Shown here: piece by piece, positions 51,164-63,859 of the stretch
How positions within the stretch are numbered: the first letter of the stretch is position 1
Layout: the number at the start of each line of letters is the position of its first letter
Assembly: GCA_026393475.1 (NCBI GenBank)
Contig: JAPLAA010000054.1
Coordinates: 1 to 64,000 of the forward strand
Reading direction: 5' to 3'
DNA from: Actinomycetota bacterium
Lineage (GTDB): Bacteria > Actinomycetota > Acidimicrobiia > Acidimicrobiales > Ilumatobacteraceae
Length of the DNA stretch: 64,000 nucleotides
Program-made: the position numbers and the translations under genes
The notes under the pieces: generated by a model
What the model saw: only the letters and a program-made list of their open reading frames with translations
What the model was told of the DNA's origin: nothing
Database searches by the model: none

Positions 51164-51721
51164 TCAGCGACCGAGATCCGTTGCCGTGTCGACCGCTGTG
51201 GACAGCAGGTCGACCGCGAACGGCCACGGATCGGCGAGACCGAGCCCTCCGACCCCCACGAGCACGACCCGCCCGTCGGCCAGCCTCGCCGCCGCGAATC
51301 CTTGCGACCCCCACGCCTGGACACCGATTCCCTCGATCGCGATCTCGTCGCGTGAGCCCATCGGCTGGAAGAAGGAGCCGGACTCGGCTGGGATCAGCTC
51401 GACCTCGACCCCGCCGGCGATCACCGAGTTGGGGGCGTTCGGCAGGACGTACCTGCATTCGTCGCCAGGTGTGTTCGGATCGGTTCCGGCGGTCGCCACA
51501 ACGGAGAGTCCCGTGGCTTCGAGGTCAGCGATCGACAGGAGGTCACATGCGACGACAGGCGCTCCCGCTGAGGTGGTGTCGTCCAGCTCGATCGTCGTCA
51601 GCGTGGTCGACGTGGCCGATGTGGCCGCGGCTGACGGGTTCGATCGATCCGGTGAACACGAAGCAAGCACGCCGACCGCGCCCAACCAGAAACACAGCGC
51701 CAGGATCGTCGTGGGCTGCAC
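51164..51721 (-). CDS. Lipoprotein of unknown function
   Basis: 185 aa from a GTG at 51721 (an in-frame start at 51856 is possible but adds 45 Arg-rich residues). The signal [16 protein letters not shown] has a good lipobox with Cys22, then a Ser/Thr linker. The mature domain ([40 protein letters not shown]) resembles DUF3558-like actinobacterial lipoproteins, with two cysteines probably forming a disulfide. Function is unknown. It converges with otsB. Confidence 0.7.
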
Positions 51722-52369
51722 CGACGCGCCCGCTCGGCGTGCGGGAGCCTTCGCTGTTCGACGCGGGTTCGTGATGCCGTTGAGCGGTCCGTCGAACGGC
51801 TGGCTTCGACGGTCCACACGACGGTCCTGACTGAGCTCTCCCCTGACCGACACCAACAGACGGTCGCGCCTGAGGCGGCAACCGCGGCGGATTGCACCAA
51901 AGGTTCACGACCCGTTCGGCGTGGATTCAACGAGTCCCGACGCCGGCACCCGGCCGACACCGATCCCTCGCCCACGAGGCCCAGCCGTGAGGACGTTCCT
52001 GTCGCCGTCCGAGAGCTCCAGCCGCACCTTCACCACGCCCAGGAAGCCGAGACGCGTATGGGGTTGCAACGAAGAAGCCGACCGTGCAGCATGAGCGTTG
52101 CCCCCTGCAGTAGCGGGTGGAAGTACACCCGGTGAGCCCTCCGGACGGTGGGTAGCCGGGTGTTGCGCGTTCGGGCCCGACGTTGCGGATGTCCGAGATG
52201 ATCGCCTCGGTGATCCGTCGGACGCGATCGAGCCGATGACTGCGCGTTCCGACTGCAGCGCTGCCGTCGCTGCCGCACCGTTGGCTGACCCGTCGCCTTC
52301 GACGCCATGGCGACATCCGTGCTGATACATCGCTGATACGCCGCTGATTCGTGGTCCGGAAAACGACAA
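51722..52369. other. Intergenic stretch before the tRNA fragment
   Basis: About 650 bases with no gene that I can support. Several frames stay open because of GC content, but none has a recognisable domain or a good ribosome site. The right end (52,323 onward) carries TGATACAT repeats that recur on the other side of the tRNA remnant. Confidence 0.5.
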
Positions 52370-52395: not shown

Positions 52396-52433
52396 CCTCT
52401 GTCACGACACCGAATTGAGCCGGTGGCGTTCAG

Positions 52434-52475
52434 CGCGCTCGAAGGGACTCGAACCCCTAACCTTCTGATCCGTAG
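52434..52475 (-). tRNA. 3' fragment of tRNA-Arg(ACG), attachment-site remnant
   Basis: On the minus strand the sequence runs CTACGGA (anticodon loop, anticodon ACG), the 3' half of the anticodon stem TCAGA, variable loop AGGTT, a T-arm AGGGG-TTCGAGT-CCCTT and the acceptor strand CGAGCGC plus G73. The bases upstream do not form the 5' anticodon strand, D-arm or acceptor, so the gene is cut at the anticodon loop. Integrases commonly use this region as core site. I interpret it as one end of an integrated element extending to the right. Confidence 0.82.
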
Positions 52476-52692
52476 TGGAAATCGGCCTCATCCGTCTCGT
52501 GCCGCCATGTATCAGATCATGCCGCTGAGCAGGACAAATACATTGATCACCGGACGGGGTGGGACTCGTTGGTACGGGCTGGTATCAGCCGTTTTGATAC
52601 ATATCTGATACATCGCCGTTCGGCGGTCGAAATCCTCCTTCTGACCATCTGTGTGTTGTACGCAGGTCGACAACACGCTGCGTATCGGAAAC

Positions 52693-53808
52693 TCAGCGGT
52701 CCTTGATGGCGTCGAGGGTGCTGGTGGTGGTGCGCGACGCTGCGGCGCGGGTGAGGGCGAGTGTCACGAGTGTGGTGGCGATGAGTGTCCTTGCGAGCGA
52801 GGTCCAGCCGACGTCGTTGATTCCTGCGGGGAGGTCGTGGCGGCGTACGGCGAGGCCGGTCGTGAGGGCGGCGAGTGCGAACGCGGTTGCGAGGATCGCT
52901 GCGAGTTCGAGGGTGGCGAGGGTCCAGATCCGTCGGCGGTCGAGGCCGGCGATGGCGTAGAGGGCGTGGTCGCTGCGGCGGAGGCGGAGATGCAAGAGCG
53001 CAATCGCGATGAAGGCGAGAGTGGTGATCGCCCAGTAGTACTGCGACGGACGGTGTTCGAAGCGGTACTGGGGCGTGTCGAACTGCTCGGCTGATGGGAG
53101 TGCCCAGCGCTGGCTGTAGCCGTCGAGGACCGGCAGCGCGGTGTCGATGGATCGGTTGACGTGGTCTCGGCGTGATGTGTCGACGTAGAGGGCGCAGGCG
53201 GCAACGGGCCCGGGTGTGGGGTCGATGGTGACGATGTTGCCCGAGGATCCTGCGCCCAGAGCGGTGAGGGCGACGGTTCGGGCGGTGGTGTCGTAGCTGG
53301 TGCCGTCCTGGTCGACCAGTCGGAGCGGGAACGGGGTGTTGGAAGGTGAGGCGACGAGCGCGTCGGTGTCGACGAGTGCTTGTGCCGTGTCCGGCCCGTC
53401 GGCGGGTGATGGGTTGGCGGCTCGGAGGAAGTCGATGATGTCTGCGCTGACGGCTCGGACGGGCACGTAGGGCCCGTTGCCGCTCCAGAGCGTGAACGGC
53501 TCGGGCTCGCGCATCGCGACGGATGCTTCGACGCCATCGATCGCGCCAAGGGTGCCGCAGGTGTCGGTGGACAGGGTGTTGCCGGCGGGGTTGTCCTGTT
53601 CGACGAGCAGTGTCGCCCAGCCGGTGTCGATCAGTTCGCGTTCGTAGTTGCGGACGTCTGTCGTGCTGTTGATCTCAGCGAGCGTGGCGCCGGTGATCAT
53701 CGCAGTGATCGCGAGGGTCAGGCCGAGGCTGAGCGCAGGACGAGCGAACGTGTTGGCTGCGGCCTCCGCGGCCAGACGGCGGAGGCTGGTGCGGCGCTCA
53801 CGTCGCAT
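52693..53808 (-). CDS. ABC transporter permease (FtsX/MacB-like)
   Basis: 371 aa from the ATG at 53808, overlapping the ATPase gene by 11 nt. One membrane helix near residue 30 (ALSLGLTLAITAMITGATLA), a 190-residue extracytoplasmic domain with two cysteines (DTCGTLGAID, VAACALYVD), then three C-terminal helices (YYWAITTLAFIAIALLHLRL, LATLELAAILATAFALAALT, LARTLIATTLVTLALTRAAA). This is the FtsX/MacB topology, which moves peptides or acts on the envelope mechanically rather than importing. It ends the seven-gene peptide/lipoprotein cluster of the element. Confidence 0.85.
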   Translation of the reverse strand: MRRERRTSLRRLAAEAAANTFARPALSLGLTLAITAMITGATLAEINSTTDVRNYERELIDTGWATLLVEQDNPAGNTLSTDTCGTLGAIDGVEASVAMREPEPFTLWSGNGPYVPVRAVSADIIDFLRAANPSPADGPDTAQALVDTDALVASPSNTPFPLRLVDQDGTSYDTTARTVALTALGAGSSGNIVTIDPTPGPVAACALYVDTSRRDHVNRSIDTALPVLDGYSQRWALPSAEQFDTPQYRFEHRPSQYYWAITTLAFIAIALLHLRLRRSDHALYAIAGLDRRRIWTLATLELAAILATAFALAALTTGLAVRRHDLPAGINDVGWTSLARTLIATTLVTLALTRAAASRTTTSTLDAIKDR

Positions 53809-54418
53809 GGAGACCGTCTTCTGCGAGCCGGAGGACCGTGGCGGTGTCGGGGAGCGCATCGTGGTCGTGGGTGACGACCAGCACGCAGCGATGCTCGATG
53901 GCCGCGCTGTCCACGAGTGCTTGCATGACACGACGTGCGTTGTCGCGGTCGAGCTGGTTGGTGGGTTCGTCGGCGAGCAGGATCGGTCGAGTCGAGGTGA
54001 GCGCTCGCGCGACCGCGAGGCGCTGCAGTTCGCCACCTGAGAGTTGCCGGGCCTTCGCGTCGGCGAGGTCGCCGATGCCGACCAGGTCGAGGTTGGCGCG
54101 GGCGCGTTCGCTCGCCTGCTTCGACGGCATCCCGTCGAGACGGGCGAGCAGCGCAGCGTTCGCAAGGACGGTGCGTGCGCCGAGCGAGTTCAGGGTTTGC
54201 AGCACCCACGCGAACGGTGCCGGCCGATCCGTGTCGATGCCGATCTGTCCGTGGGTGGCCGGCAGGACCCCGCCGATCACGGCGAGCAGCGTGGATTTGC
54301 CAGTGCCCGATGGTCCTTCGACCGCGACGGCCTCGCCCGGGACGAGTTGCAGAGTGACATCTTCGAACAGCACCCGTCCGGTGGGGAGCCGAAAACCGAC
54401 ACCGCTCGCGGTCAGCAC
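53798..54418 (-). CDS. ABC transporter ATP-binding protein (MacB/LolD-like)
   Basis: 206 aa. Walker A GPSGTGKST at residues 35-43, Q-loop in FAWVLQTLNSLGART, signature LSGGELQRLAVARAL, Walker B PILLADEPTNQLD, and the switch His in VVTHDHDAL. Length and motif spacing match the MacB/LolD subgroup that partners FtsX-like permeases. It overlaps both the adaptor gene (7 nt) and the permease gene (11 nt). Confidence 0.95.
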   Translation of the reverse strand: MLTASGVGFRLPTGRVLFEDVTLQLVPGEAVAVEGPSGTGKSTLLAVIGGVLPATHGQIGIDTDRPAPFAWVLQTLNSLGARTVLANAALLARLDGMPSKQASERARANLDLVGIGDLADAKARQLSGGELQRLAVARALTSTRPILLADEPTNQLDRDNARRVMQALVDSAAIEHRCVLVVTHDHDALPDTATVLRLAEDGLHAT

Positions 54419-55458
54419 GGCGTGGCGCGGTCCGGATCGACCGACACGAGCGTGCCATCGGACAGTTCACCGTCGACGAAGACCGTGCCGACCGACGACG
54501 AACGCACCGTCACCGGCACCACTGAGCGGGCGTCGCCGACGACGGCAATCACGCACGTCCCGCTGCCTCCGGTGATGATCGACGAAGCGGGCACTGTCGC
54601 AAGCTGCACCGGTTCAGCGAGGCGCACCGACCCGGCCGCCGACGCCGGCAGACCATCGGCCAACAGACCGGTCTCACGCAGCATCGACTCCAGCGCAGCA
54701 ACATCGCCGATCGCCCCATCGGCGTCGACGCTCACACGCGCGGGATTCGTGTCGACACCGAAGACCATCGGCGCCTCGTCAGCTCCACCCGGACTGCTCT
54801 CATCGGCGACCGGTGCGGTGACGGTCACCGTCGCTGACGTCAATCGCTCCGCCACCGACATCACCGCGTCACCAGGAGCGATCGGAACGCCCGGCTCGAC
54901 CGAAACCGCAGTCGGCGTGAACGGTTCGGTCAGCCACATCAACTCGCCAGGCTCCACCGTCGCGTCCACAGCCATCCCGAGCGATGCCTGCCAGAACCTG
55001 ATCGCGTCACGACGCTGCGCCGCAGATGGAGCAGCCACCCCCTCGAAGAACCCGACCGAACGCAACCACGCAACGAAGTCGTCGCTGTCCCGACCCTTCG
55101 ACGTCGCCGACACCGCGCCGGTCAACGGACGCGGTCCGCAGTACGACACGACCGGAAACGAGTCGACCTCGAACACTGCGACGCCGCAACCGACCTCCAC
55201 ACCCGGCGCGGCGAACACCGCCGACACCACACCCGCCGACGACGAGCGCACCACCCCCGGCGACGACCACACCAGATCCGCAGAAGCGTTCACAGGCAGA
55301 TCCGTCGGGCGCGACACCACCGACACCGTCGCCGCAGCCGACCGCCACACCCACAAGGCCAGCAACCCCGCGGCGAAGAGCCCGGGGAATCATCGAGCCG
55401 ACCCCGACGATTCCGCCCCCGCGCGATCTCGTTCAGCCTGTGTGCTCACACCGAACAT
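54412..55458 (-). pseudogene. Adaptor protein of the ABC system, interrupted by an in-frame UGA
   Basis: From an ATG at 55458, directly overlapping the upstream stop (TGATG), the frame runs 22 codons (MFGVSTQAERDRAG...) to a TGA at 55392-55390, then continues in the same frame for 325 codons to 54412. The part after the TGA begins FPGLFAAGLLALWVWRSAAA, a membrane helix, followed by a peptidoglycan-binding-like fold (WLRSVGFFEGVAAPSAAQRR, AIRFWQASLGMAVDATVEPG) and a beta domain, as in MacA/HlyD-like adaptors next to MacB systems. Either the gene is inactivated, or it restarts at the TTG at 55365 (317 aa), or the UGA is read through. Both parts being in one frame argues for a single base change. 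Confidence 0.75.
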
Positions 55459-56069
55459 CATCCGCCACCGAACAACGACGGCGGACAACGCCCGTCACCC
55501 ATCGCCTCGTACGCCTCGTCGTTCAACGGATTCCAGTTCTCGTCCATGAACTCGAGATCCGACGGCACCGGCACGCCGATGTGGTCGAGACACACACGAG
55601 CTGTCTCGTCGAAGATCTTCATCTGCGCGATCGGATAGCCACCCAACACCACCGGATCGGTGAGCTGGAATGCGATCTCGGTCTGAACGAAGAAGCGCTG
55701 ATAGCAGTCGTTCTCCACGGAATCGCCGGACTGACCAGGCGGCAGCAGCGGCGCATCGCTCGACGTCTGATAGCTGACCACGCCCGTCACCTCATCACGA
55801 CCCGTCTCGTCCAGCCGACCGCCCGCCCCGCGAACACAATCCTCGAACCTTGCAAAGCCGCTCTGATACTCGGCGAGCGTGACCACCTGGTCCTCGAAGA
55901 ACTCCTGCTGCTCGGCAGGCACATCAGCAGCAGCCGGCAATGAGTATCCGTCGGGCGACGTATCTGGCCCGGACTCGTCCGAGCCACACGCACCGCAGAC
56001 CACGACAGCGACCGCAAAAAGCATGCGACCGCCGAACCGGCCTACGGCACGCGTGAAACCCGGACTCAT
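55458..56069 (-). CDS. Lipoprotein of duplicated peptide/lipoprotein module, copy 1
   Basis: 203 aa. A signal region (MLFAVAVVVCGACGSD) with a lipobox-like CGAC is followed by PAEQQEFFEDQVVTLAEYQS GFARFEDC, NDCYQRFFVQTEIAFQLTD, and CLDHIGVPVPSDL; four cysteines follow the anchor. It is clearly paralogous to the lipoprotein at 56,709 along its whole length. I know no named family. It follows the secreted peptide gene by 1 base and overlaps the adaptor gene. An immunity or substrate-binding role for the peptide is possible but unproven. Confidence 0.7.
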   Translation of the reverse strand: MSPGFTRAVGRFGGRMLFAVAVVVCGACGSDESGPDTSPDGYSLPAAADVPAEQQEFFEDQVVTLAEYQSGFARFEDCVRGAGGRLDETGRDEVTGVVSYQTSSDAPLLPPGQSGDSVENDCYQRFFVQTEIAFQLTDPVVLGGYPIAQMKIFDETARVCLDHIGVPVPSDLEFMDENWNPLNDEAYEAMGDGRCPPSLFGGG

Positions 56070-56070
56070 C

Positions 56071-56391
56071 TCAATCCGTGAACTCTTGCACGCGCGCCGA
56101 GACCGTCAACGCGCATCCGCCCGAGGTTGGTGCCCGGGACGTGCCACCGACCGCAGTCCAACTCCCGTACTGGATCGAACCCTGGCTGCCGTTACTGCAG
56201 GTCTGCCGGACTCGCTGGAGCCCCCCGCCCACCGCCGTCGTGCACCGACCAGTGGTGTAGGTGCCATTGTTGACTGCGCCGGTGCAGTTGGTCAGGTAGG
56301 CCGAGGCTGTGCCTCCGCTCGCAATTCCGACGACCGAACCTCCAGTCGCGATGAGAACGCACAGCATTCGCTTTCCGAACGATTTCTTCAT
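56071..56391 (-). CDS. Small secreted Cys-containing peptide, copy 1
   Basis: 106 aa with AAGGAGG before the ATG. Signal peptide (MKKSFGKRMLCVLIATGGSV, end TASA, cleavage predicted before Tyr32). The mature 75 residues have four cysteines (36, 50, 65, 93), two presumed disulfides, and SIQYGSWTAVGG. The same four-cysteine frame and YGxW motif occur in the peptide at 57,299. It is not a known bacteriocin family that I can name (not lactococcin-972 by motif). An AT-rich 317-bp spacer upstream should hold its promoter. Confidence 0.75.
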   Translation of the reverse strand: MKKSFGKRMLCVLIATGGSVVGIASGGTASAYLTNCTGAVNNGTYTTGRCTTAVGGGLQRVRQTCSNGSQGSIQYGSWTAVGGTSRAPTSGGCALTVSARVQEFTD

Positions 56392-56434
56392 GATTCCTCC
56401 TTAGGAAACAATTGAGATCGTCCGCCCACAAAGA

Positions 56435-56463
56435 TCGTAATCCCTATCCTGCCATCAAATCAA
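56435..56463 (-). promoter_or_regulatory. Candidate promoter of peptide copy 1
   Basis: On the minus strand TTGATT (56463-56458) and TTACGA (56440-56435) are 17 bases apart, about 45 bases upstream of the ATG. The match to a sigma-A promoter is moderate. The rest of 56,392-56,708 is AT-rich and without a gene. Confidence 0.3.
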
Positions 56464-56708
56464 GAATAATTCCTGTCATGCGAGCTGTCGGAAGCCCACT
56501 CGCCGTGGCGTCTTTCAGCTCAGAGATCTCGCCTTAGTCACTGTGTTCGCGATGGGTTCAGGGCTCGTGTATTTCTACCCCTCGAGCTTCTCAAGGACCT
56601 CGACGAAGATTCACGGGTTCGCACCACCAGCTATTCTGGGCGGATGAACCGTTCATTTCAGCAGCCAAGTCGCGGAAATACAAAGCGCTTGCCGGGCGTC
56701 CGAACGAC

Positions 56709-57299
56709 CTAATCCAGGACGCATGTTCCTTCGTTGATCAAGGTGATTGCAACTTGCGTTAGGTCGCCGAACAGTTGCGTCCCGGACTCGATGTCGTCAG
56801 GTACGTCATACCCATTGGCCTCCAGGCACGGCTCAAGATCACGCCGGAAGGTGTCGAGGCTCTCCTGGTTTCCGGCCGCAAGGACTGCGGCGTCCGTCGT
56901 CTGCCACTCGAGTTCTATCTCCGAGAAGAATCTTCGATAGCAGCGGTCGACAGCAGATCCATTGTCCGGGCCCGAGACCGTGAGTTCTCCCTTGACACCG
57001 AAGCGAATCAGACCCGTCGCCGGGTCGCTCGCTACATCGACCACGTTCCTCTCATCAGCGTTGGCGCACGCTTCGAACTGCTGGAAGGCCTCGGTGTATT
57101 CGAGCGTACTCACAACCCCATCCTCGAACGCCGCCCGCTGTTCAGGCGGGATGTCGTCCAGGTTTAGCGCGTTCGAGGAGGGTGGCGCCGCTGAAGTGTC
57201 GGAGCCACCCTCCCCACAACCAGCGCCGCCGAGTATCAGCAATCCCGCGACCGGCAGTACCGACCACGACCGGCATAGAGCCCAGCGGCGATCTCGCAT
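56709..57299 (-). CDS. Lipoprotein of duplicated module, copy 2
   Basis: 196 aa. Signal LPVAGLLILGGAGCGEGG with a lipobox-like end, then PPEQRAAFEDGVVSTLEYTE AFQQFEAC, DRCYRRFFSEIELEWQTTD and CLEANGYDVPDDI. These line up with copy 1 at 55,458 residue by residue (FED.VV, EY...F..FE.C, D.CY.RFF, CL...G..VP.D). It overlaps the peptide copy 2 stop (TAATG). Unknown function; co-expressed with its peptide. Confidence 0.7.
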   Translation of the reverse strand: MRDRRWALCRSWSVLPVAGLLILGGAGCGEGGSDTSAAPPSSNALNLDDIPPEQRAAFEDGVVSTLEYTEAFQQFEACANADERNVVDVASDPATGLIRFGVKGELTVSGPDNGSAVDRCYRRFFSEIELEWQTTDAAVLAAGNQESLDTFRRDLEPCLEANGYDVPDDIESGTQLFGDLTQVAITLINEGTCVLD

Positions 57300-57604
57300 T
57301 ACTGGAGCTGCCAGGTCTTATTGCTCATAGTGAGGCCGCATGTCACGGTCGAGAGAACGTTCACCCCTCGCCACGGACCGTAGAGAGTCGTGCCTCCACC
57401 AGATCCCGAACACGTGACCTTCGCTCGCTGCTGATTTTCCGGGTACGGGTTGCCCACGTTCGCTGTGTTGCACGAGGTGTTCCATGTGGTTCCACTCGTG
57501 TAGCCACCGCAGCCTGTGAGGCCTGCGTCTGCAACACCGCTTCCCATTGCAACCGTGCTTCCGGCCGCGACCAGAGCGGCAACAATGAATCGACGAAATC
57601 TCAT
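57299..57604 (-). CDS. Small secreted Cys-containing peptide, copy 2
   Basis: 101 aa with GAAGGAGG before the ATG. Signal peptide (FIVAALVAAGSTVAMGSGVA, end ADA, cleavage predicted after residue 27). The mature part has cysteines at 32, 45, 65 and 89, with LTGCGGYTSGTTWNTSC, VTCSGSGGGTTLYGPWRGV and CGLTM. Spacing and the YGxW motif match peptide copy 1. It is the first gene of the seven-gene run. Mature size (74 aa) and disulfides fit a secreted toxin, signal or structural peptide. Confidence 0.75.
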   Translation of the reverse strand: MRFRRFIVAALVAAGSTVAMGSGVADAGLTGCGGYTSGTTWNTSCNTANVGNPYPENQQRAKVTCSGSGGGTTLYGPWRGVNVLSTVTCGLTMSNKTWQLQ

Positions 57605-58000: not shown

Positions 58001-58480
58001 TACCTTGATGCCAGTCGGTTCACCAGAGCCCGCAGGACTCAGAGTCGCCCCAGCGCCGTGCCAACGAGTGTTGTTGTGTCACGTCGCACCTGCTCAGAGC
58101 GGGTGCGGCAGTCCAGGCTGTACCGTCCGTCCCATCCTGTCCCAGCACGTTTCGCGGCAAAATTCGCGGCAAGGACTGCGCAGGGCCTGCGGACTCCGTT
58201 ATCTGCAGTGCGTCACGGAGACGTGACGGACCCCTTCGTCGGGGTGGTCGTCGGCGTGTTCGATCCGCTTCTGAGCTTGCGGATCCGTGCGATCTTTCGG
58301 TCGGTGTCGGATCGCCGGATCGGGTCGGTGATCCGACCGAGGCGCACCCCGGCGAGGAGGTAGGCGAGGTCGACGGCTCGCTCCGAAACTACGGGCGGGC
58401 CACGGATGCATCGCGAGGTCCGCGACGGCGGCAACGTCGTGAGCGTCGAACGGGTCCGCCGCCCGCTGCGCCTGAACGGG

Positions 58481-58905
58481 ATGGCCGACCACATGCGCAC
58501 CGAGCTTGTGATCGATGCGCACAACGGAGCGATCACCGCCCGTGGCGGTGACATCGCCGGCGTGATCGCACACGCGGATCGCTGACGCTCACGCTGGCGT
58601 CGATACGTCAGCGTCAGCGTCAGCGACTCGGACCGGCTCGCCGACAACGACGTCGTCGCGTCGGTCGAGTCCAAGGGCGACAGCTACGACAACGCGATGG
58701 CCGAGAGCTTCAACCGGCTCTACATGTGGAACTGATCTACCCGAAGGGACCGTGGCGGGGCCTCGATGCCGTCGAGTTCGCGACCCTCACCTACGTCGGC
58801 TGGTTCAAGTAACCGGCGCCTCCACGGCGAGATCGAGCCCGGCGCCGGCTACACGACACCGGCAGGCTCGAAGCCGACCGATACCCGCAAAGTGAACCGA
58901 ACTGG
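58481..58905 (+). pseudogene. IS3 family transposase remnant
   Basis: Pieces of the DDE domain are recognisable across three frames: MADHMRTELVIDAHNGAITA and GVIAHADR then stop, SDRLADNDVVASVESKGDSYDNAMAESFNRLY, then after a 1-base shift YPKGPWRGLDAVEFATLTYV and, after another, NRRLHGEIEPGAGY. A normal copy would read GVIAHADRGSQY...DSYDNAMAES without breaks; the GSQY part, and the N-terminal half with the first Asp, are missing or altered. An inactive remnant, typical of element cargo. Confidence 0.85.
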
Positions 58906-59135
58906 GATCCCTGGAGGCTCTCGTGTGCCCTGGGTTCTGCGCAATCAGCTTGCTTGGTCGCGGGCGTGGTGGTGTGGCGGAGCTCGTGCTCGATCGGGCT
59001 GGGCATGCCGAGTGAGCCGTCCCCTGGTCTATTGCCGCCATTCGGGCCAGCGTTGGCAAAGAATCGATCTTGACTGCAGGTCTCGGTAGTCCTACGATGT
59101 ATTCACGGGCAAAAAAGAGACTGGTGGCAATTCCT

Positions 59136-59708
59136 ATGAGATCCGCTTCACTGTCCATTTTGACTCTACTTTTGGTGCCGAGCCTTGCGATCGGATCGAC
59201 ATCTGATAACTCTTCACCGGTGAAAGACCCAGTTGGTAGTACTCAGTCCTTCCCAGACGCCATCGAGGACGGAGTTGGAAACACGTTGTATCGGGTTGAC
59301 GTGCGGCCTGTCGATATGGAAGTCCCTGGCGAGAAGGGCATGATGATTGTTCCGGGCTACGAGTGGACCTATTCGATTGCACCGAGCGAAGGGCCAAGCA
59401 GAGCAATGGGATGTTCCGTAGTCGTTTCAGCATCGCTGCCGTTCATCCAGTTCGCTCAGGTGAGAGCAACCGCGACTGTCAATGTTTCACCCGAATGCCT
59501 CCCCTTCAAATGGAACCATCAGATGTTTCGGCTTAACACCCTGCGCGGTGGAACGTACCCCAGCAATTCCACATTCTTTACGATAGCCCCGGGGTCGTTT
59601 GACACTGACCAGAGGAGTTCGCCTTGCGGGAGTTCCTCAGGTGCCAGTAGTTGGAGCAATCGAGTCAATGGGACGATTTACACCTCGACGTTCCTGGCTT
59701 GTTCGTAG
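59136..59708 (+). CDS. Secreted protein of unknown function
   Basis: 190 aa from the ATG at 59136 (59097 also possible). The signal MRSASLSILTLLLVPSLAIG is followed by an Asp/Ser-rich mature protein with four cysteines (AMGCSVVVSA, SPECLPFKW, SPCGSSSG, FLACS at the end). The region is noticeably richer in A+T than the flanking genes, which suggests foreign origin. I do not recognise a family. It is followed by another unknown gene 65 bases downstream in the same direction. Confidence 0.55.
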   Translation: MRSASLSILTLLLVPSLAIGSTSDNSSPVKDPVGSTQSFPDAIEDGVGNTLYRVDVRPVDMEVPGEKGMMIVPGYEWTYSIAPSEGPSRAMGCSVVVSASLPFIQFAQVRATATVNVSPECLPFKWNHQMFRLNTLRGGTYPSNSTFFTIAPGSFDTDQRSSPCGSSSGASSWSNRVNGTIYTSTFLACS

Positions 59709-59773
59709 CCGCTTGAAACCGATAGATTCTCTCGGTTGGCTAAGACCCGTGAGTAGGCGGAGAAACCTGTTTC

Positions 59774-60292
59774 GTGAACACTGATCCTCTACTCGATGAC
59801 TGGCACAACGCGGCGACTCGCGTTGGATTCCGACCATACGAACTGGTTGACCCGGTTCCGATAAGTCTATCGATGGGAGGGTTCGGCTACGGTTCTCACG
59901 GCAGCGTTCATGTCGACGTTGTGTTCGCCGTTGACGACTACGAGATCACCGTTTCGACGTCAGTCGGTCAGACCCAACGTGCGAACGACGATGAGGAGAT
60001 CCGTCAGGCGATCTTGCGGAGTGTCGAGTCTGTCTTTGACCGCGGGGTGACTTTGCCACTCACGCTGCACTTCGCTCTTTCCATCGAGGAGGTGTTGGTG
60101 GAGGTCTTGGTGGACGATGCGCCAGTCATGTTCCGTGGGATCTTGAGTTCGGAGCTTGACGATTGGGAAGTGAGCGCCGGTGTCGGTGACGGCATTGTGA
60201 TTGGGATCGGCGGACGCCGGGGCGTCCCATTTCCCAGAGCTCTCCGCATACGAGCAGACCTCACGCTCGACGACCCAATCGCATCCTCGTGA
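59774..60292 (+). CDS. Hypothetical cytoplasmic protein
   Basis: 172 aa from a GTG. It has no signal peptide or membrane helix: MNTDPLLDDWHNAATRVGFR, a beta-rich middle (SVHVDVVFAVDDYEITVSTS) and VLVEVLVDDAPVMFRGILSS. Acidic. The base composition is lower in GC than the host genes. Function is unknown; being paired with a secreted protein gene, it could be a partner or immunity protein, but that is speculation. Confidence 0.5.
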   Translation: MNTDPLLDDWHNAATRVGFRPYELVDPVPISLSMGGFGYGSHGSVHVDVVFAVDDYEITVSTSVGQTQRANDDEEIRQAILRSVESVFDRGVTLPLTLHFALSIEEVLVEVLVDDAPVMFRGILSSELDDWEVSAGVGDGIVIGIGGRRGVPFPRALRIRADLTLDDPIASS

Positions 60293-60371
60293 TCGTGCTA
60301 CCCCGATGCTGTGGGGCCAACTTCGTCGGAACCTCTGGCTTGATCTCAGTGGCCCATCAGATGAGCTGTGC

Positions 60372-63083
60372 TCAGAGTTCGATGCCGTAGTCGACGTCGG
60401 CTCGGTCGACGTGTTGTGCGGGCGGGTTCAGCGCTGGGTGCTCGGGGGCGACGGTGATGAGGAGTGCGCGGGCTTCGGGGACGGTGTCGACGTATCGGGC
60501 GAGTTCTTCGACGGCGTGGTCGAGGTCGGGGCCTGTGATGGTGTGGCCGGCGGCCCAGGTGCGCCAGGTGGTGATCGCCTGGTCGAGCGCGATGTCGTCG
60601 GCGCGGTAGTTGCGGAGATCGGCGGCTCGGCGGTCGTGCTTGTCGAGCTGCTGGGTGGCGACGGCCAATTCGCGACGCGCTGCCTCACGCTGTTCGGTGA
60701 CGGGTTGGTAGATGGCTTCGAGTTCATCGAGGCGACTGGCGCTCAGGGTTGCCCGTTCGGTCGCTTCGGTCGCGGCTCGCTCGAGCTGGCGCCGTGTTCG
60801 CCAGGTGGCGTTGCCGGCCCGGTAGCGGGCGGTGCGAGCGGCGGCGTCGTCGATGTTCGCCTCACGACGGGCTTGGGACAGGTCGTGCTGATCGGGTGCA
60901 GGGAGTGCACGGGCCTTGTCGTAGCTCTCTCGGGCGTTGGCGACGGACTGCTCGAGGGCGGGGCGTTCCTCGGTCATCGAGGCGAGGAGCCCGCCGATCA
61001 TCGGGACCCGGTCCCGGACATCGGACTGCCACTCGTTGAGCCAGGCGGGCTCGACCGCCCGGCGGCGAGGGCCGGGTGCCGGTGCGGGTTGGCGTTCGGC
61101 GAGGTGTCGCTGGTGGGTGACGGCGGGGGTGTCGGCCCGGTCGGTGGCGAGGACCCGTCCGAGCAAGTCCATGGCTTCGCGTTCGGAGTGCTGTTCGGTG
61201 ACGACGAGGAGTTGGTTGTCGTCGCGTCCGCGGGTCGCGCCGACGTAGAGGCCTCGTCCTGTGGTGGTGCCGGTGACGAGGGTGATTGATTGGTCGGTGG
61301 TGATGCCTTGGTTTCCGTGCTCGGTCGTTGCGTAGGCGAGCTGCACGAACTCGGACACATAGGCGGCAGGCAGTGTCACGGTTGCGTCGCTGGTGTGTGG
61401 GCGGGCGGTGATCGAGCCGTCGTCGTGGGTGGCGGTGATGGTCCAGCGGTCGCGGTTGCGGACGCTGTCGCCGGCGGTGGTGGTGAGGGTGCGGTCGTTG
61501 CGGCGGGTCATCACCACGTCACCGATGTAGATGTCGCCGTCGGCCGCAGCGACGGGCACGCCGGTGAGCGCGCCGGTCTTGAGCCGTGCGTTCTGGATGT
61601 GGTGGTTGATGAGGGTGGCGTGTTCGTTGGTGGTGGTCGTGATCGCCAACGAACGCCCCTTCCTCTGCGCGTCGGCCCATTGCCTGCCGATCGTGCGGAG
61701 GTGCTGGTCGAGGTTCCCGGGTTCGACGCGTCCGTGCCACAGGTACTCCGACAGCACGGCCGGGTCACCTCGACGCAGCCGGAGTGATGCTGAGGCTTCC
61801 CATGGCTCGGTGAACCTGTGGACCTGTTCGAGCTCGACCGTCCGCGACGCGGTGGCGGCGATCTCCGGAAACATGCCGCCGCGTGCGACTGCTTGGAGTT
61901 GGTGTGGGTCACCGACCAACACCACTCGCAGATCCAGTCGTTGGGCGAGATCTGTGAGGCGCCACAGGTCCGGGGTCGAGACCATGCCTGCTTCGTCGAC
62001 GATCACGGTCGTGCCGCGCTTCAGCCGCCACTCGGGTCGCGGGCCGCCGTCACGGGCGTGTTCGTGCATGAGCTTGGCGAGCGTGTCCGTGCGCATCCCT
62101 GTCTCGTCTTCGAGGACACGGGCCGCCTTCGCGGTCGGGGCGACGCCGAAGACTGATCGGTCGTGTCGCCGGAGGTCGTCGATCGCTGCGGTGAGCATGC
62201 TCGTCTTCCCAGCACCGGCTGGGCCGATGATCACCACCAACCGATCCCCACCCGCGACCTCCGCTGCAGCGGCGGCCTGCACGACGTCGAGGTGGCCGCG
62301 TTCGATCGACGTCGACGGTGACGGCTCGAGGCCCTGGGCGCTCAACGTCCAGGCGAGGAGGTCGAGTTCCTGATCGATCACCTGCTGCGACGACCAACGC
62401 GGCGCGACCGGTTCGACCCACACCGACCGACCATCCGACCCGCGACCGTTCTCGCCGTCTCGCTGGTCGGGGTCGAGACCGACGCACTGCTCGAGCACCG
62501 TGTCCAGCGCACGATCCAACAGACCCGACCACCGCTCGCCGTCGATGCCTTTGCGTGGTTGGAAGCGGTCGGTAATCTCGCGGAGCGCGTCGAGGTCGTG
62601 CCAGACACTCTTGCGATCCGACAGCGCCGTGACGATCTCGGCGACCGTGGTCTTCGCCGGCTCTGCTTGTGCGCGTCCGGCGGTGTTCACGGCGTCGATC
62701 ACCGAGCGCGGGGTGTGTCCGAGATCGGTGGCTTCCTTGCGCCACGCGGTCCGCAGCTCTGCGGCAGCGGAGCCGGTCTTCTTCACCCGTGTGTCCGCAG
62801 CTGCCTCTCGCTCGATCGCTGCCCGCTCGAACCGCGACGGCTGACGGCCCTCTCGTGCTTCGAAGTCCTCGATTCGGGCGTCGGTCTCGCCGTCGACCTG
62901 GGCGGCGCGCTTGGAGAACGCTGCCAACAGGTTCGGGTCGAGCCCGGTGATCTCGGCCTGGCCATTGACGATGGCCTCCCACGTGACACCGAACTTGGCG
63001 GTGAGCTCGGAGCGGAGCACCGACTGATACAGGCCACCGAAGGTTCGCTGGTGCTGCTTCAACACACGCGCGTCCAACGCCAT
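60372..63083 (-). CDS. MobF relaxase/helicase (TraA/TrwC-like), C-terminal part
   Basis: 903 aa from an ATG at 63083. It opens MALDARVLKQHQRTFGGLYQ, SVLRSELTAKFGVTWEAIVN, the end of a TrwC relaxase domain, followed by an SF1 helicase: Walker A GPAGAGKTS at residues 287-295, VIVDEAGMVSTPDLWRL, VVLVGDPHQLQAVARGG, and late motifs VQLAYATTEHGNQGIT and YVGATRGRDDNQLLVV. A coiled C-terminus follows. It should unwind plasmid or element DNA during transfer, but the nicking motifs lie in the separate N-terminal fragment or are lost. The 5' sequence encoding KVQTADGRW lies just before the ATG in the same frame, so a longer ancestor is clear. Confidence 0.85.
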   Translation of the reverse strand: MALDARVLKQHQRTFGGLYQSVLRSELTAKFGVTWEAIVNGQAEITGLDPNLLAAFSKRAAQVDGETDARIEDFEAREGRQPSRFERAAIEREAAADTRVKKTGSAAAELRTAWRKEATDLGHTPRSVIDAVNTAGRAQAEPAKTTVAEIVTALSDRKSVWHDLDALREITDRFQPRKGIDGERWSGLLDRALDTVLEQCVGLDPDQRDGENGRGSDGRSVWVEPVAPRWSSQQVIDQELDLLAWTLSAQGLEPSPSTSIERGHLDVVQAAAAAEVAGGDRLVVIIGPAGAGKTSMLTAAIDDLRRHDRSVFGVAPTAKAARVLEDETGMRTDTLAKLMHEHARDGGPRPEWRLKRGTTVIVDEAGMVSTPDLWRLTDLAQRLDLRVVLVGDPHQLQAVARGGMFPEIAATASRTVELEQVHRFTEPWEASASLRLRRGDPAVLSEYLWHGRVEPGNLDQHLRTIGRQWADAQRKGRSLAITTTTNEHATLINHHIQNARLKTGALTGVPVAAADGDIYIGDVVMTRRNDRTLTTTAGDSVRNRDRWTITATHDDGSITARPHTSDATVTLPAAYVSEFVQLAYATTEHGNQGITTDQSITLVTGTTTGRGLYVGATRGRDDNQLLVVTEQHSEREAMDLLGRVLATDRADTPAVTHQRHLAERQPAPAPGPRRRAVEPAWLNEWQSDVRDRVPMIGGLLASMTEERPALEQSVANARESYDKARALPAPDQHDLSQARREANIDDAAARTARYRAGNATWRTRRQLERAATEATERATLSASRLDELEAIYQPVTEQREAARRELAVATQQLDKHDRRAADLRNYRADDIALDQAITTWRTWAAGHTITGPDLDHAVEELARYVDTVPEARALLITVAPEHPALNPPAQHVDRADVDYGIEL

Positions 63084-63126
63084 CCACCGCCCATCCGCGG
63101 TCTGGACCTTCGCCGACTACCTCGTG

Positions 63127-63381
63127 AACGACCTGCACCACCCGACCATCCGCCGTCGTCCGATCCGTCAACGCCCGGCCGAGACTCCGGCCCGTCACGG
63201 GATCGAGGCCGCCCAGGAGGGCCTGCAACTGCTCGCCTTCCACCGTCCCGACCAGGCCGAGCCCGTCGGCCTGGGCGCCCATCCACACGCCGGGAGCCTC
63301 TCCCGGCGCAGCGGTCAGGTACTTCGTGTAGTACGCAGCCGAGGAGGCGGCCGACGACGCGTACAACGTGGTCACACGCAT
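63127..63381 (-). pseudogene. N-terminal fragment of the MobF relaxase
   Basis: From an ATG at 63381 the frame gives MRVTTLYASSAASSAAYYTK, with the paired catalytic tyrosines (YY) of MobF relaxases, then GLGLVGTVEGEQLQALLGGL, DPVTGRSLGRALTDRTTADG, RVVQVV. After that the frame leaves relaxase sequence, and the next recognisable part (SAKVQTADGRW, from 63116) is in another frame. The roughly one hundred residues normally in between, including the HUH metal-binding histidines, are missing. The break lies in 63117-63126. Confidence 0.8.
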
Positions 63382-63478: not shown

Positions 63479-63859
63479 TCAGAACCCGCGGCCCAGCTGC
63501 AGGTCCGCATTCGAATCAGCTGCATCCGCCCGAGAGTGCGTCACGTCGCGGTGACGCGTTGACGTCGTGCTCGAGTGCGATGAGCGCTTCGCGTCAGCGC
63601 ATGACGCGCAGGACATGTCCGATGCGGGCCTGAGTTCGTTGTCGACGAGAGGCCACGTGATCGGACCGCCGTGCAGCTTCTCCAGGGCCAGGCGCGGAAC
63701 GCGCTTCAACTTGCCCAGGCGAACGAATGGCAGCCCTGTCTCGCCGCCGCTCTTCTCGAACTCGGTCGCCAGCTTGTACGCCGAGTTCCGACCGATCCGC
63801 AGGATCCGCCCCGCCTCGGGCAGCGTGAAGAAGTCCGGCACCGCCGTCGACACGCTCAT
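63479..63859 (-). CDS. Excisionase-like helix-turn-helix protein
   Basis: 126 aa from an ATG at 63859 (the frame also has an ATG 3 nt upstream). The first 75 residues are a MerR/Xis-type winged helix: FFTLPEAGRILRIGRNSAYK, LPFVRLGKLKRVPRLALEKL, then GGPITWPL. Such proteins regulate excision or copy control in actinobacterial integrated elements and are usually next to the integrase gene. The last 45 residues look unordered. The integrase is probably just beyond the right edge. Confidence 0.8.
   Translation of the reverse strand: MSVSTAVPDFFTLPEAGRILRIGRNSAYKLATEFEKSGGETGLPFVRLGKLKRVPRLALEKLHGGPITWPLVDNELRPASDMSCASCADAKRSSHSSTTSTRHRDVTHSRADAADSNADLQLGRGF

What the first reader, a model, noticed from the sequence alone, without database searches (positions are those of the whole stretch)
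52693..57604. Duplicated Cys-peptide/lipoprotein module joined to an adaptor-ATPase-permease set
Seven minus-strand genes run peptide, lipoprotein, peptide, lipoprotein, adaptor, ATPase, permease, with overlaps at most joints. Both peptides have a Sec signal, about 75 mature residues, four cysteines in the same order and a YGxW motif; both lipoproteins align along their whole length. MacB-type systems with a dedicated secreted peptide are known for some bacteriocins, but I recognise neither the peptide nor the lipoprotein family. Inference: a mobile secreted-peptide system (toxin with lipoprotein immunity, or signalling), with a duplicated peptide-lipoprotein pair that has diverged.
Basis: partly seen in the sequence, partly recalled or inferred. 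Interest (0 to 1): 0.85.

Follow-up and report, generated by a model that had tools for sequence, protein, structure and literature searches.

The report
Secreted peptide, lipoprotein and ABC cassette
A mobile DNA element in an uncultured actinobacterium carries two small secreted proteins, each with its own partner lipoprotein, next to a membrane pump; relatives with very different secreted proteins recur in this bacterial class and look like unnamed toxin-and-self-protection pairs, though no activity has been tested.

Summary
The seven-gene run is real and its two peptide-lipoprotein pairs are true paralogous modules. It forms one end of a 14.2-kb element bounded by 44-bp repeats, one inside a tRNA-Arg gene, with integrase and relaxase. 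In this window the adaptor gene is broken (80 bp missing relative to a sister genome, where it is intact).

The lipoprotein belongs to an unnamed family found in 113 of 296 sampled genomes of the class (E <= 0.001). It occurs in three settings: (P) just downstream of a small Sec-secreted protein, often in arrays, alone or beside adaptor, ATPase and MacB-type permease; (T) with a related ABC set, often beside two-component genes, without a secreted protein; (S) as the outer part of anti-sigma-like proteins. Secreted-protein genes precede 38 of 77 lipoproteins outside the T clade and 0 of 35 inside it (39 and 2 before discarding hits judged false). Secreted families without detectable similarity share this lipoprotein family, and similar secreted proteins have similar lipoproteins.

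Best explanation (about 0.5): bacteriocin-like proteins with cognate immunity lipoproteins and a shared MacB-type clearing pump; it works like NisI/NisFEG or lactococcin 972 clusters, without being shown to belong to them. Export and signalling remain open. Both structure predictions failed.

The parts
57299..57604 (-). PepA, small secreted 4-Cys protein (101 aa, Sec signal, YGPW)
56709..57299 (-). LipA, lipoprotein paired with PepA (start overlaps PepA stop by 1 base)
56071..56391 (-). PepB, small secreted 4-Cys protein (106 aa, YGSW)
55458..56069 (-). LipB, lipoprotein paired with PepB
54412..55393 (-). HlyD/MacA-like adaptor, frame broken near its 5' end by an 80-bp deletion relative to L003; open part 54412-55365
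53798..54418 (-). ABC ATPase of the FtsE/LolD/MacB kind
52693..53808 (-). MacB-type permease (371 aa)
52433..52476 (.). left 44-bp attachment-like repeat (part of tRNA-Arg); identical copy at contig position 66569-66612, outside the window
60372..63083 (-). TrwC/MobF-type relaxase-helicase of the element, N-terminal part missing
63479..63859 (-). short DNA-binding-like protein of the element (by look only; not scanned). Its neighbour at contig 64148-64510 hits HTH_17 just below cut-off
   Evidence: inference

Best explanation
Each pair is a bacteriocin-like secreted protein plus its cognate immunity lipoprotein. The peptide leaves the cell by Sec and probably folds with disulfides. The lipoprotein, anchored outside the membrane, binds the same peptide and keeps it from the producer's envelope. 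The adaptor, ATPase and MacB-type permease form a shared clearing pump that pushes captured peptide away from the membrane and through the wall; the adaptor's peptidoglycan-binding insert, seen in most relatives, would tie the pump to the wall. One pump serves several pairs, which are gained, lost and exchanged as units, here on an integrative element. Shown by sequence: gene order, signals, pairing, co-variation of partners, shared pump genes, mobile element. Inferred: toxicity, binding, immunity, clearing. In the window itself the adaptor gene is broken, so this copy may not have a working pump.
For: Detector hits for secreted genes precede 38 of 77 lipoproteins outside the T clade and 0 of 35 inside it; unfiltered 39 of 77 and 2 of 35, Fisher 1.6e-6. 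Across 44 pairs from 18 genomes, similarity of secreted proteins tracks similarity of their lipoproteins (rho 0.24, 0 of 999 permutations reach it; 0.23 between genomes). Secreted families without detectable similarity share one lipoprotein family. Single ABC sets stand beside several pairs (L044, L080, window). T-type relatives place the lipoprotein with a MacB-type set beside two-component genes, the look of peptide-resistance operons. Precedents read in passages: NisI/NisFEG (PMC8538875, PMC5786555), YknXYZ against SDP (PMC5985334), Sec-secreted mediterrocin with ABC genes (PMC12345188). The genes are under purifying selection between window and L003 (dN/dS 0.15-0.36, adaptor 3' part only; few changes in the peptides).
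Against: No toxic activity, binding or immunity has been tested. Adjacent genes that duplicate together co-vary without touching each other. Many pairs stand without a local ABC set. The lipoprotein domain in anti-sigma-like proteins points to sensing. Between window and L003 the peptides (98 and 99% identity) are more conserved than the lipoproteins (96 and 94%), so there is no sign of an arms race in the peptide. About half of the non-T lipoproteins have no detected secreted gene. Structure models failed.
Confidence: 0.5

Rival explanations
1. Export or surface-delivery machine: after Sec export the small protein is taken up by its lipoprotein and pushed through the thick wall by the adaptor-MacB set, as MacAB-TolC exports the Sec-delivered STII peptide. 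The protein's job outside (toxin, adhesion, surface) is open.
For: Sec signal plus MacB-type set plus adaptors that mostly carry PG_binding_1; STII precedent read in passages of PMC5985334; co-occurrence by genome.
Against: T-type sets carry the same lipoprotein and ABC genes with no credible secreted gene upstream (0 of 35 in the clade, 2 detector hits discarded); 16 detector-positive lipoproteins (one judged false) have no permease nearby, although one elsewhere in the genome could serve.
Confidence: 0.2
2. Signalling: the secreted protein is a ligand, the lipoprotein its receptor, and the MacB-type set or an anti-sigma factor passes the signal on.
For: The same domain is the outer part of anti-sigma-like proteins beside sigma-factor genes in G033 and G293, and a lone lipoprotein adjoins an ECF sigma operon in G168 (the G293 sigma gene judged by sequence only); T-type sets lie beside two-component genes. 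LipB's nearest relative in the tree, apart from its L003 copy, is the G033 anti-sigma domain (support 0.95).
Against: No regulator lies in the window cassette; the anti-sigma loci show no secreted gene upstream (L011; L175, by eye).
Confidence: 0.18
3. Cell-wall or surface upkeep: a secreted structural protein with a lipoprotein chaperone and a wall-anchored ABC set, unrelated to competition.
For: Peptides are well conserved between sister genomes (98-99% identity, dN/dS 0.22-0.36 on few changes); PG-binding adaptors in the family.
Against: Patchy distribution (LipB: 5 of 200 genomes of its own family), arrays of diverged pairs, several secreted families, location on an integrative element.
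Confidence: 0.1

Closest known systems
Lantibiotic self-immunity LanI + LanFEG (NisI/NisFEG)
   Same: A membrane lipoprotein that binds one secreted peptide, together with an ABC transporter that clears it (passages of PMC8538875, PMC5786555).
   Different: Peptides here carry Sec-type signals; no lanthionine enzyme was noticed in the element (by eye); the ABC set is MacB-type with an adaptor; the lipoprotein family matches no Pfam or NCBIfam model usefully.
Lactococcin 972 family clusters (Lcn972, Sil, mediterrocin)
   Same: Small Sec-secreted unmodified protein beside ABC genes thought to give immunity (passages of PMC12345188, PMC4004548). The family's ABC ATPase model TIGR03608 is the third-best NCBIfam hit of the window ATPase, 109 bits against a cut-off of 254.85.
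   Different: No Lcn972 model among hits of PepA, PepB or 7 other secreted proteins at E up to 5; Lcn972 has no cysteines (PMC8538875 passage); the permease has no Pfam hit, so no DUF1430 match; here a lipoprotein and an adaptor are added.
YknWXYZ / Gram-positive MacAB-like sets
   Same: Adaptor + ATPase + MacB-type permease in a Gram-positive envelope, protecting from a peptide (PMC5985334 passages; PMC4887032 abstract start in the listing).
   Different: A dedicated lipoprotein and a linked peptide gene are not part of that set as far as I recall; only weak sequence similarity of the permease to MacB-type structures.
BceRS-BceAB / CprABC-CprRK type resistance operons
   Same: Comparable to the T-type relatives: two-component genes beside ABC genes, with a lipoprotein in some (PMC5786555 passages).
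   Different: T-type permease has MacB_PCD + FtsX domains (one scanned), not the ten-TM BceB; an adaptor is present.
MacAB-TolC export of enterotoxin STII
   Same: Sec-exported disulfide peptide handled afterwards by a MacB-type machine (PMC5985334 passages).
   Different: No outer-membrane channel gene in the cassette; lipoprotein partner added.

Membership tests
MacB-type (type VII) ABC transporter | C-terminal FtsX-like membrane part of the permease | tested here: met
   P-type permease profile A5 hits 5xu1 (pneumococcal, organism recalled), MacB, YtrF and LolF chains at E 2e-5 to 8e-3 over profile positions about 244-343. The window permease alone has no Pfam or NCBIfam hit.
MacB-type (type VII) ABC transporter | MacB-like extracytoplasmic domain | tested here: inconclusive
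   The profile matches cover only the C-terminal part; a T-type relative does hit MacB_PCD (3e-21).
MacB-type (type VII) ABC transporter | FtsE/LolD-like ATPase | tested here: met
   ABC_tran 5e-25; best NCBIfam hits FtsE, CydD, L_ocin_972_ABC, then CydC, DevA and LolD, all below curated cut-offs.
HlyD/MacA adaptor with PG-binding insert | PG_binding_1 and biotinyl-lipoyl domains in the family | tested here: met
   PG_binding_1 in 8 of 11 adaptors, Biotin_lipoyl_2 in 2 of 11.
HlyD/MacA adaptor with PG-binding insert | The same domains in this element's own adaptor | tested here: not met
   L003 adaptor: no Pfam family at 0.01; the window's open part: only PDZ_Tricorn 0.025 and RND_mfp 0.077, below cut-offs. 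It aligns to the others along its length.
Lactococcin 972 family bacteriocin | Match to the family's profile model | tested here: not met
   No Lcn972 model among hits of 9 secreted proteins in Pfam or NCBIfam at E up to 5.
Lactococcin 972 family bacteriocin | Beta-sandwich fold as 2LGN | tested here: inconclusive
   Peptide model mean pLDDT 39.7; profile A8 against PDB sequences found one irrelevant chain at E 0.71.
Lantibiotic immunity LanI/LanFEG | Lanthionine-modified peptide with its modification enzymes nearby | tested here: inconclusive
   None noticed among translations of the element; only some genes were scanned with Pfam.
Lantibiotic immunity LanI/LanFEG | Lipoprotein binds its peptide and protects the producer | not testable with these tools
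   Needs binding and killing assays.
Integrative mobilisable element | Direct repeats at a tRNA gene, site-specific integrase, relaxase | tested here: met
   44-bp identical repeats 52433-52476 and contig 66569-66612; tRNA-Arg(acg) at the right end; Phage_integrase E 8e-24; TrwC E 2e-18. Relaxase N-terminal part missing, so mobility today is doubtful.
Known anti-phage defence system | PADLOC profile match of several genes | tested here: not met
   Only the ATPase matches, to ATPase-bearing models (best mads_3, 7e-24); the other six proteins none at 0.01.

The most novel reading that the evidence does not exclude
A polymorphic effector system, recurrent in this actinobacterial class: one lipoprotein domain has become a general extracellular recognition module, evolving in step with non-homologous small secreted proteins, plugging into one shared wall-anchored MacB-type machine, partly in trans, and reused as sensor in anti-sigma factors and beside two-component systems. 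It would be a toxin/immunity/resistance/sensing continuum built on one unnamed domain.
Probability: 0.3. Interest if true: 0.8.

Novelty: new variant of a known kind. Interest (0 to 1): 0.62.

Why it matters
If the reading holds, a class of mostly uncultured actinobacteria carries a large unannotated repertoire of small secreted proteins with cognate protection lipoproteins, findable by the lipoprotein profile rather than by the peptides, which share little. It also offers a testable link between bacteriocin self-immunity, two-component peptide resistance and sigma-factor sensing through one domain.

Tried and rejected
Window peptides as members of the larger secreted family (A8): profile comparison gives 0.3% probability, so at least two secreted types without detectable similarity pair with one lipoprotein family. 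Homologues of the window peptides by profile in 298 genomes of the order: only the window's own at useful E; six matches in five other genomes at 0.02-0.05 were not followed. L093 shares a CTTAVGGG stretch with PepB (E 0.002 in a small set), a lead only. Plasmids: no hit for either peptide, LipB or permease. Viral contigs: none for A2 or the permease; the A4 profile could not be run there.

Structure: PepA model pLDDT 39.7, LipB 50.2, from 4-row alignments; no fold search was made on such models.

Rows dropped or relabelled: the relaxase row (frame mis-set). In one search: L003 pairs (near-copies), and detector hits at L103, L124 and L091 judged false by eye (a PDZ-like piece, a lipoprotein-like ORF, a doubtful ORF). 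The same three were relabelled as negative in the tree; domains under 110 aa were left out there. L093, T-ABC for the detector, was relabelled P. L101, T-ABC for the detector, was left out when the T clade was defined and lies outside it. Unfiltered, the clade contrast is 39 of 77 against 2 of 35. Unfiltered detector counts: 29 of 47 P-ABC (27 of 45 without L003), 16 of 46 unlinked and 3 of 29 T-ABC (6 with short upstream left out). A similar but not identical detector finds one upstream of 37 of 318 other genes. Nine of the 19 permease genomes are outside the 10 whose permeases built A5. Gene maps come from a home-made ORF caller.
Full report
OBSERVATION. The window lies in an unnamed actinobacterial genome (G000, contig C29). 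All seven genes are there in the stated order on the minus strand. PepA and PepB both carry a Sec-type signal, about 74-75 mature residues, four cysteines in the same order and YGPW/YGSW; their mature parts align better than all 2000 shuffles (Z 7.4) and the mature lipoproteins far better (Z 31). A genus-mate (L003, titled Actinomycetota bacterium KLAP8; apparently the same contig as G037:C43) has the same cassette at 94-99% amino-acid identity for the four small proteins. Three of six joints overlap. The adaptor is broken in the window: 80 bp present in L003 are missing, which removes the N-terminal membrane segment and the frame; short GCGGT repeats flank the gap; L003 has an intact 353-aa gene. 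Whether this is a real deletion or an assembly fault cannot be told here.

MOBILE ELEMENT. A 44-bp sequence at 52433-52476 recurs exactly at contig position 66569-66612, inside tRNA-Arg(acg). Just inside lie a Phage_integrase gene (E 8e-24) and, further in, a TrwC-type relaxase-helicase (E 2e-18). The cassette is thus the left end of a 14.2-kb integrated element. L003 carries the same 44-mer on the cassette's side; a second copy was not found in the stretch held. Synonymous divergence between the two genomes is lower in the cassette (dS 0.02-0.18 over seven genes, adaptor 3' part only) than in the neighbouring otsB (0.31) (very few sites in the peptides), as expected if the element or parts of it were exchanged after the hosts split.

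THE LIPOPROTEIN FAMILY. Neither lipoprotein, peptide nor permease has a useful Pfam or NCBIfam match, nor do the 20 members of A4 (scattered hits in one or two members, best 0.0047). Starting from LipB alone, 5 of 200 genomes of the window's family match, one of them doubtful. The A4 profile finds the family in 113 of 296 genomes of the class at E <= 0.001 and, at the stricter 1e-8, in 12 of 396 across the phylum, eight of them in the class; scoring per genome was capped at 11 and 8 candidates. The four outside the class (G272, G293, G438, G318) show no adaptor, ATPase or permease hit among the nearby genes printed (G318 is cut by a contig end). Conserved features are the lipid cysteine, a D-x2-V-x3-E motif and three further cysteines.

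THREE SETTINGS. I mapped 76 stretches and 20 more around permeases. P-type: a small Sec-secreted protein directly upstream of the lipoprotein, often in arrays (L036, L040, L044, L080), alone or beside adaptor-ATPase-permease. T-type: lipoprotein-adaptor-ATPase-permease, in many stretches beside a response regulator and a histidine kinase; Pfam confirmed these in the two loci checked (L105, L130), in the others I judge by size and position. S-type: the domain as C-terminal outer part of an anti-sigma-like protein after a sigma gene (L011 of G033; L175 of G293, judged by sequence), or a lipoprotein beside an ECF operon (L012 of G168).

COUNTS. With a crude detector, a secreted gene lies upstream of 29 of 47 P-ABC, 16 of 46 unlinked and 3 of 29 T-ABC lipoproteins (6 of 128 had too little upstream sequence). 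Of the three T-ABC cases two look false and one (L093, of the window's order) is P-like. In a tree of 114 domains the T-ABC ones other than L101 and the relabelled L093 fall in one clade of 35 (support 0.92), with no secreted gene after discarding the two false hits; of the 77 others (2 L003 copies left out) 38 have one (Fisher 1.4e-8). Unfiltered: 39 of 77 against 2 of 35, Fisher 1.6e-6. Relatedness is not corrected for. By genome, 14 of 16 with a strong lipoprotein hit (E below 1e-20) have the P-type permease (E below 1e-30), against 5 of 280 others (both searches report the same numbers of genomes, genera and complete genomes, so apparently the same set). Ten of the 14 supplied permeases to the profile; outside these it is 4 of 6 against 5 of 280 (Fisher 7e-6). 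The exceptions are G033 (the anti-sigma fusion) and G729.

PARTNERS CO-VARY. Over 44 pairs from 18 genomes, secreted-protein similarity correlates with lipoprotein similarity (Spearman 0.24; 0 of 999 permutations reach it; 0.23 between genomes only). In 30 cases with a recognisable nearest secreted relative in another genome, that relative's lipoprotein is the closest of 33-43 candidates in 21 (cases not independent, threshold chosen by me). Linked inheritance could give this without contact, so it shows that the pair is the unit, not that the partners bind. The secreted proteins fall into several groups without detectable relation: of 33 sequences the largest BLAST cluster has 19, and a profile of 12 mature sequences, mostly of it, does not match the window peptides. 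No member scanned has a convincing Pfam or NCBIfam match. A common fold below sequence detection is not excluded.

THE ABC SET. The permease profile matches MacB-type structures over the C-terminal part, best 5xu1 at 2e-5. The adaptors carry PG_binding_1 in 8 of 11 cases, though not in L003's own. One set often stands beside several pairs (window 2; L044 and L080 more), so the set looks generic and the lipoprotein specific.

MECHANISM. Precedents read as passages: NisI, a lipoprotein that binds nisin, with NisFEG that expels it (PMC8538875, PMC5786555); YknXYZ, which protects from SDP, and MacAB-TolC, which exports Sec-delivered STII (PMC5985334); mediterrocin, a Sec-secreted 89-residue bacteriocin encoded with an ABC protein and a putative 7-TM immunity protein (PMC12345188); Sil (PMC4004548). 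From these I favour cognate immunity lipoprotein plus shared clearing pump (0.5), with export (0.2) and signalling (0.18) as rivals. The anti-sigma fusions, and LipB's closeness to one of them in the tree, are the best argument for sensing. No biochemical step is shown.

NOVELTY. Nine searches of the paper library listed nothing that by title or abstract start describes this lipoprotein family or its pairing; several lists were capped at 10, only the passages named were read, and the library lacks most subscription journals. It works like known peptide self-immunity, but membership in the named families was not met or could not be tested, hence a new variant of a known kind.

Noticed in passing
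window 59139-59705 (+) and 59774-60292 (+): A second secreted-looking protein with four cysteines followed by a 172-aa protein, in a stretch of about 2.3 kb of the element (58043-60372) that does not align to L003; no Pfam hit for either. Possibly another effector-immunity pair.
   Followed up: partly
window 60372-63132: The relaxase lacks about 250 bp relative to L003 near its 5' end (L003 3029-3281) and its TrwC match covers only profile positions 176-285; the element may no longer transfer itself.
   Followed up: partly
window 51164-51817 (-): DUF3558-like lipoprotein (E 3e-4, below cut-off) between otsB and the element; no alignment to L003 at that place.
   Followed up: no
window 52080-52256 and L003 1360-1521: A stretch of about 178 bp (79% identity) lies on the chromosomal side of the cassette end in the window but on the far side of the element in L003, a hint of different insertion history.
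   Followed up: no
L011 5853-7825 (G033); L175 5965-7259 (G293): Sigma-factor gene followed by an anti-sigma-like membrane protein whose outer part is the lipoprotein domain.
   Followed up: partly
L044 5007-13273 (G529); L080 (G704): Long arrays of diverged secreted-protein/lipoprotein pairs around one ABC set; L044 also has an apparently split lipoprotein copy.
   Followed up: partly
window 1648-35594: Large flagellar gene cluster in the chromosome beside the element, judged only from the first 50 residues of the called genes.
   Followed up: no
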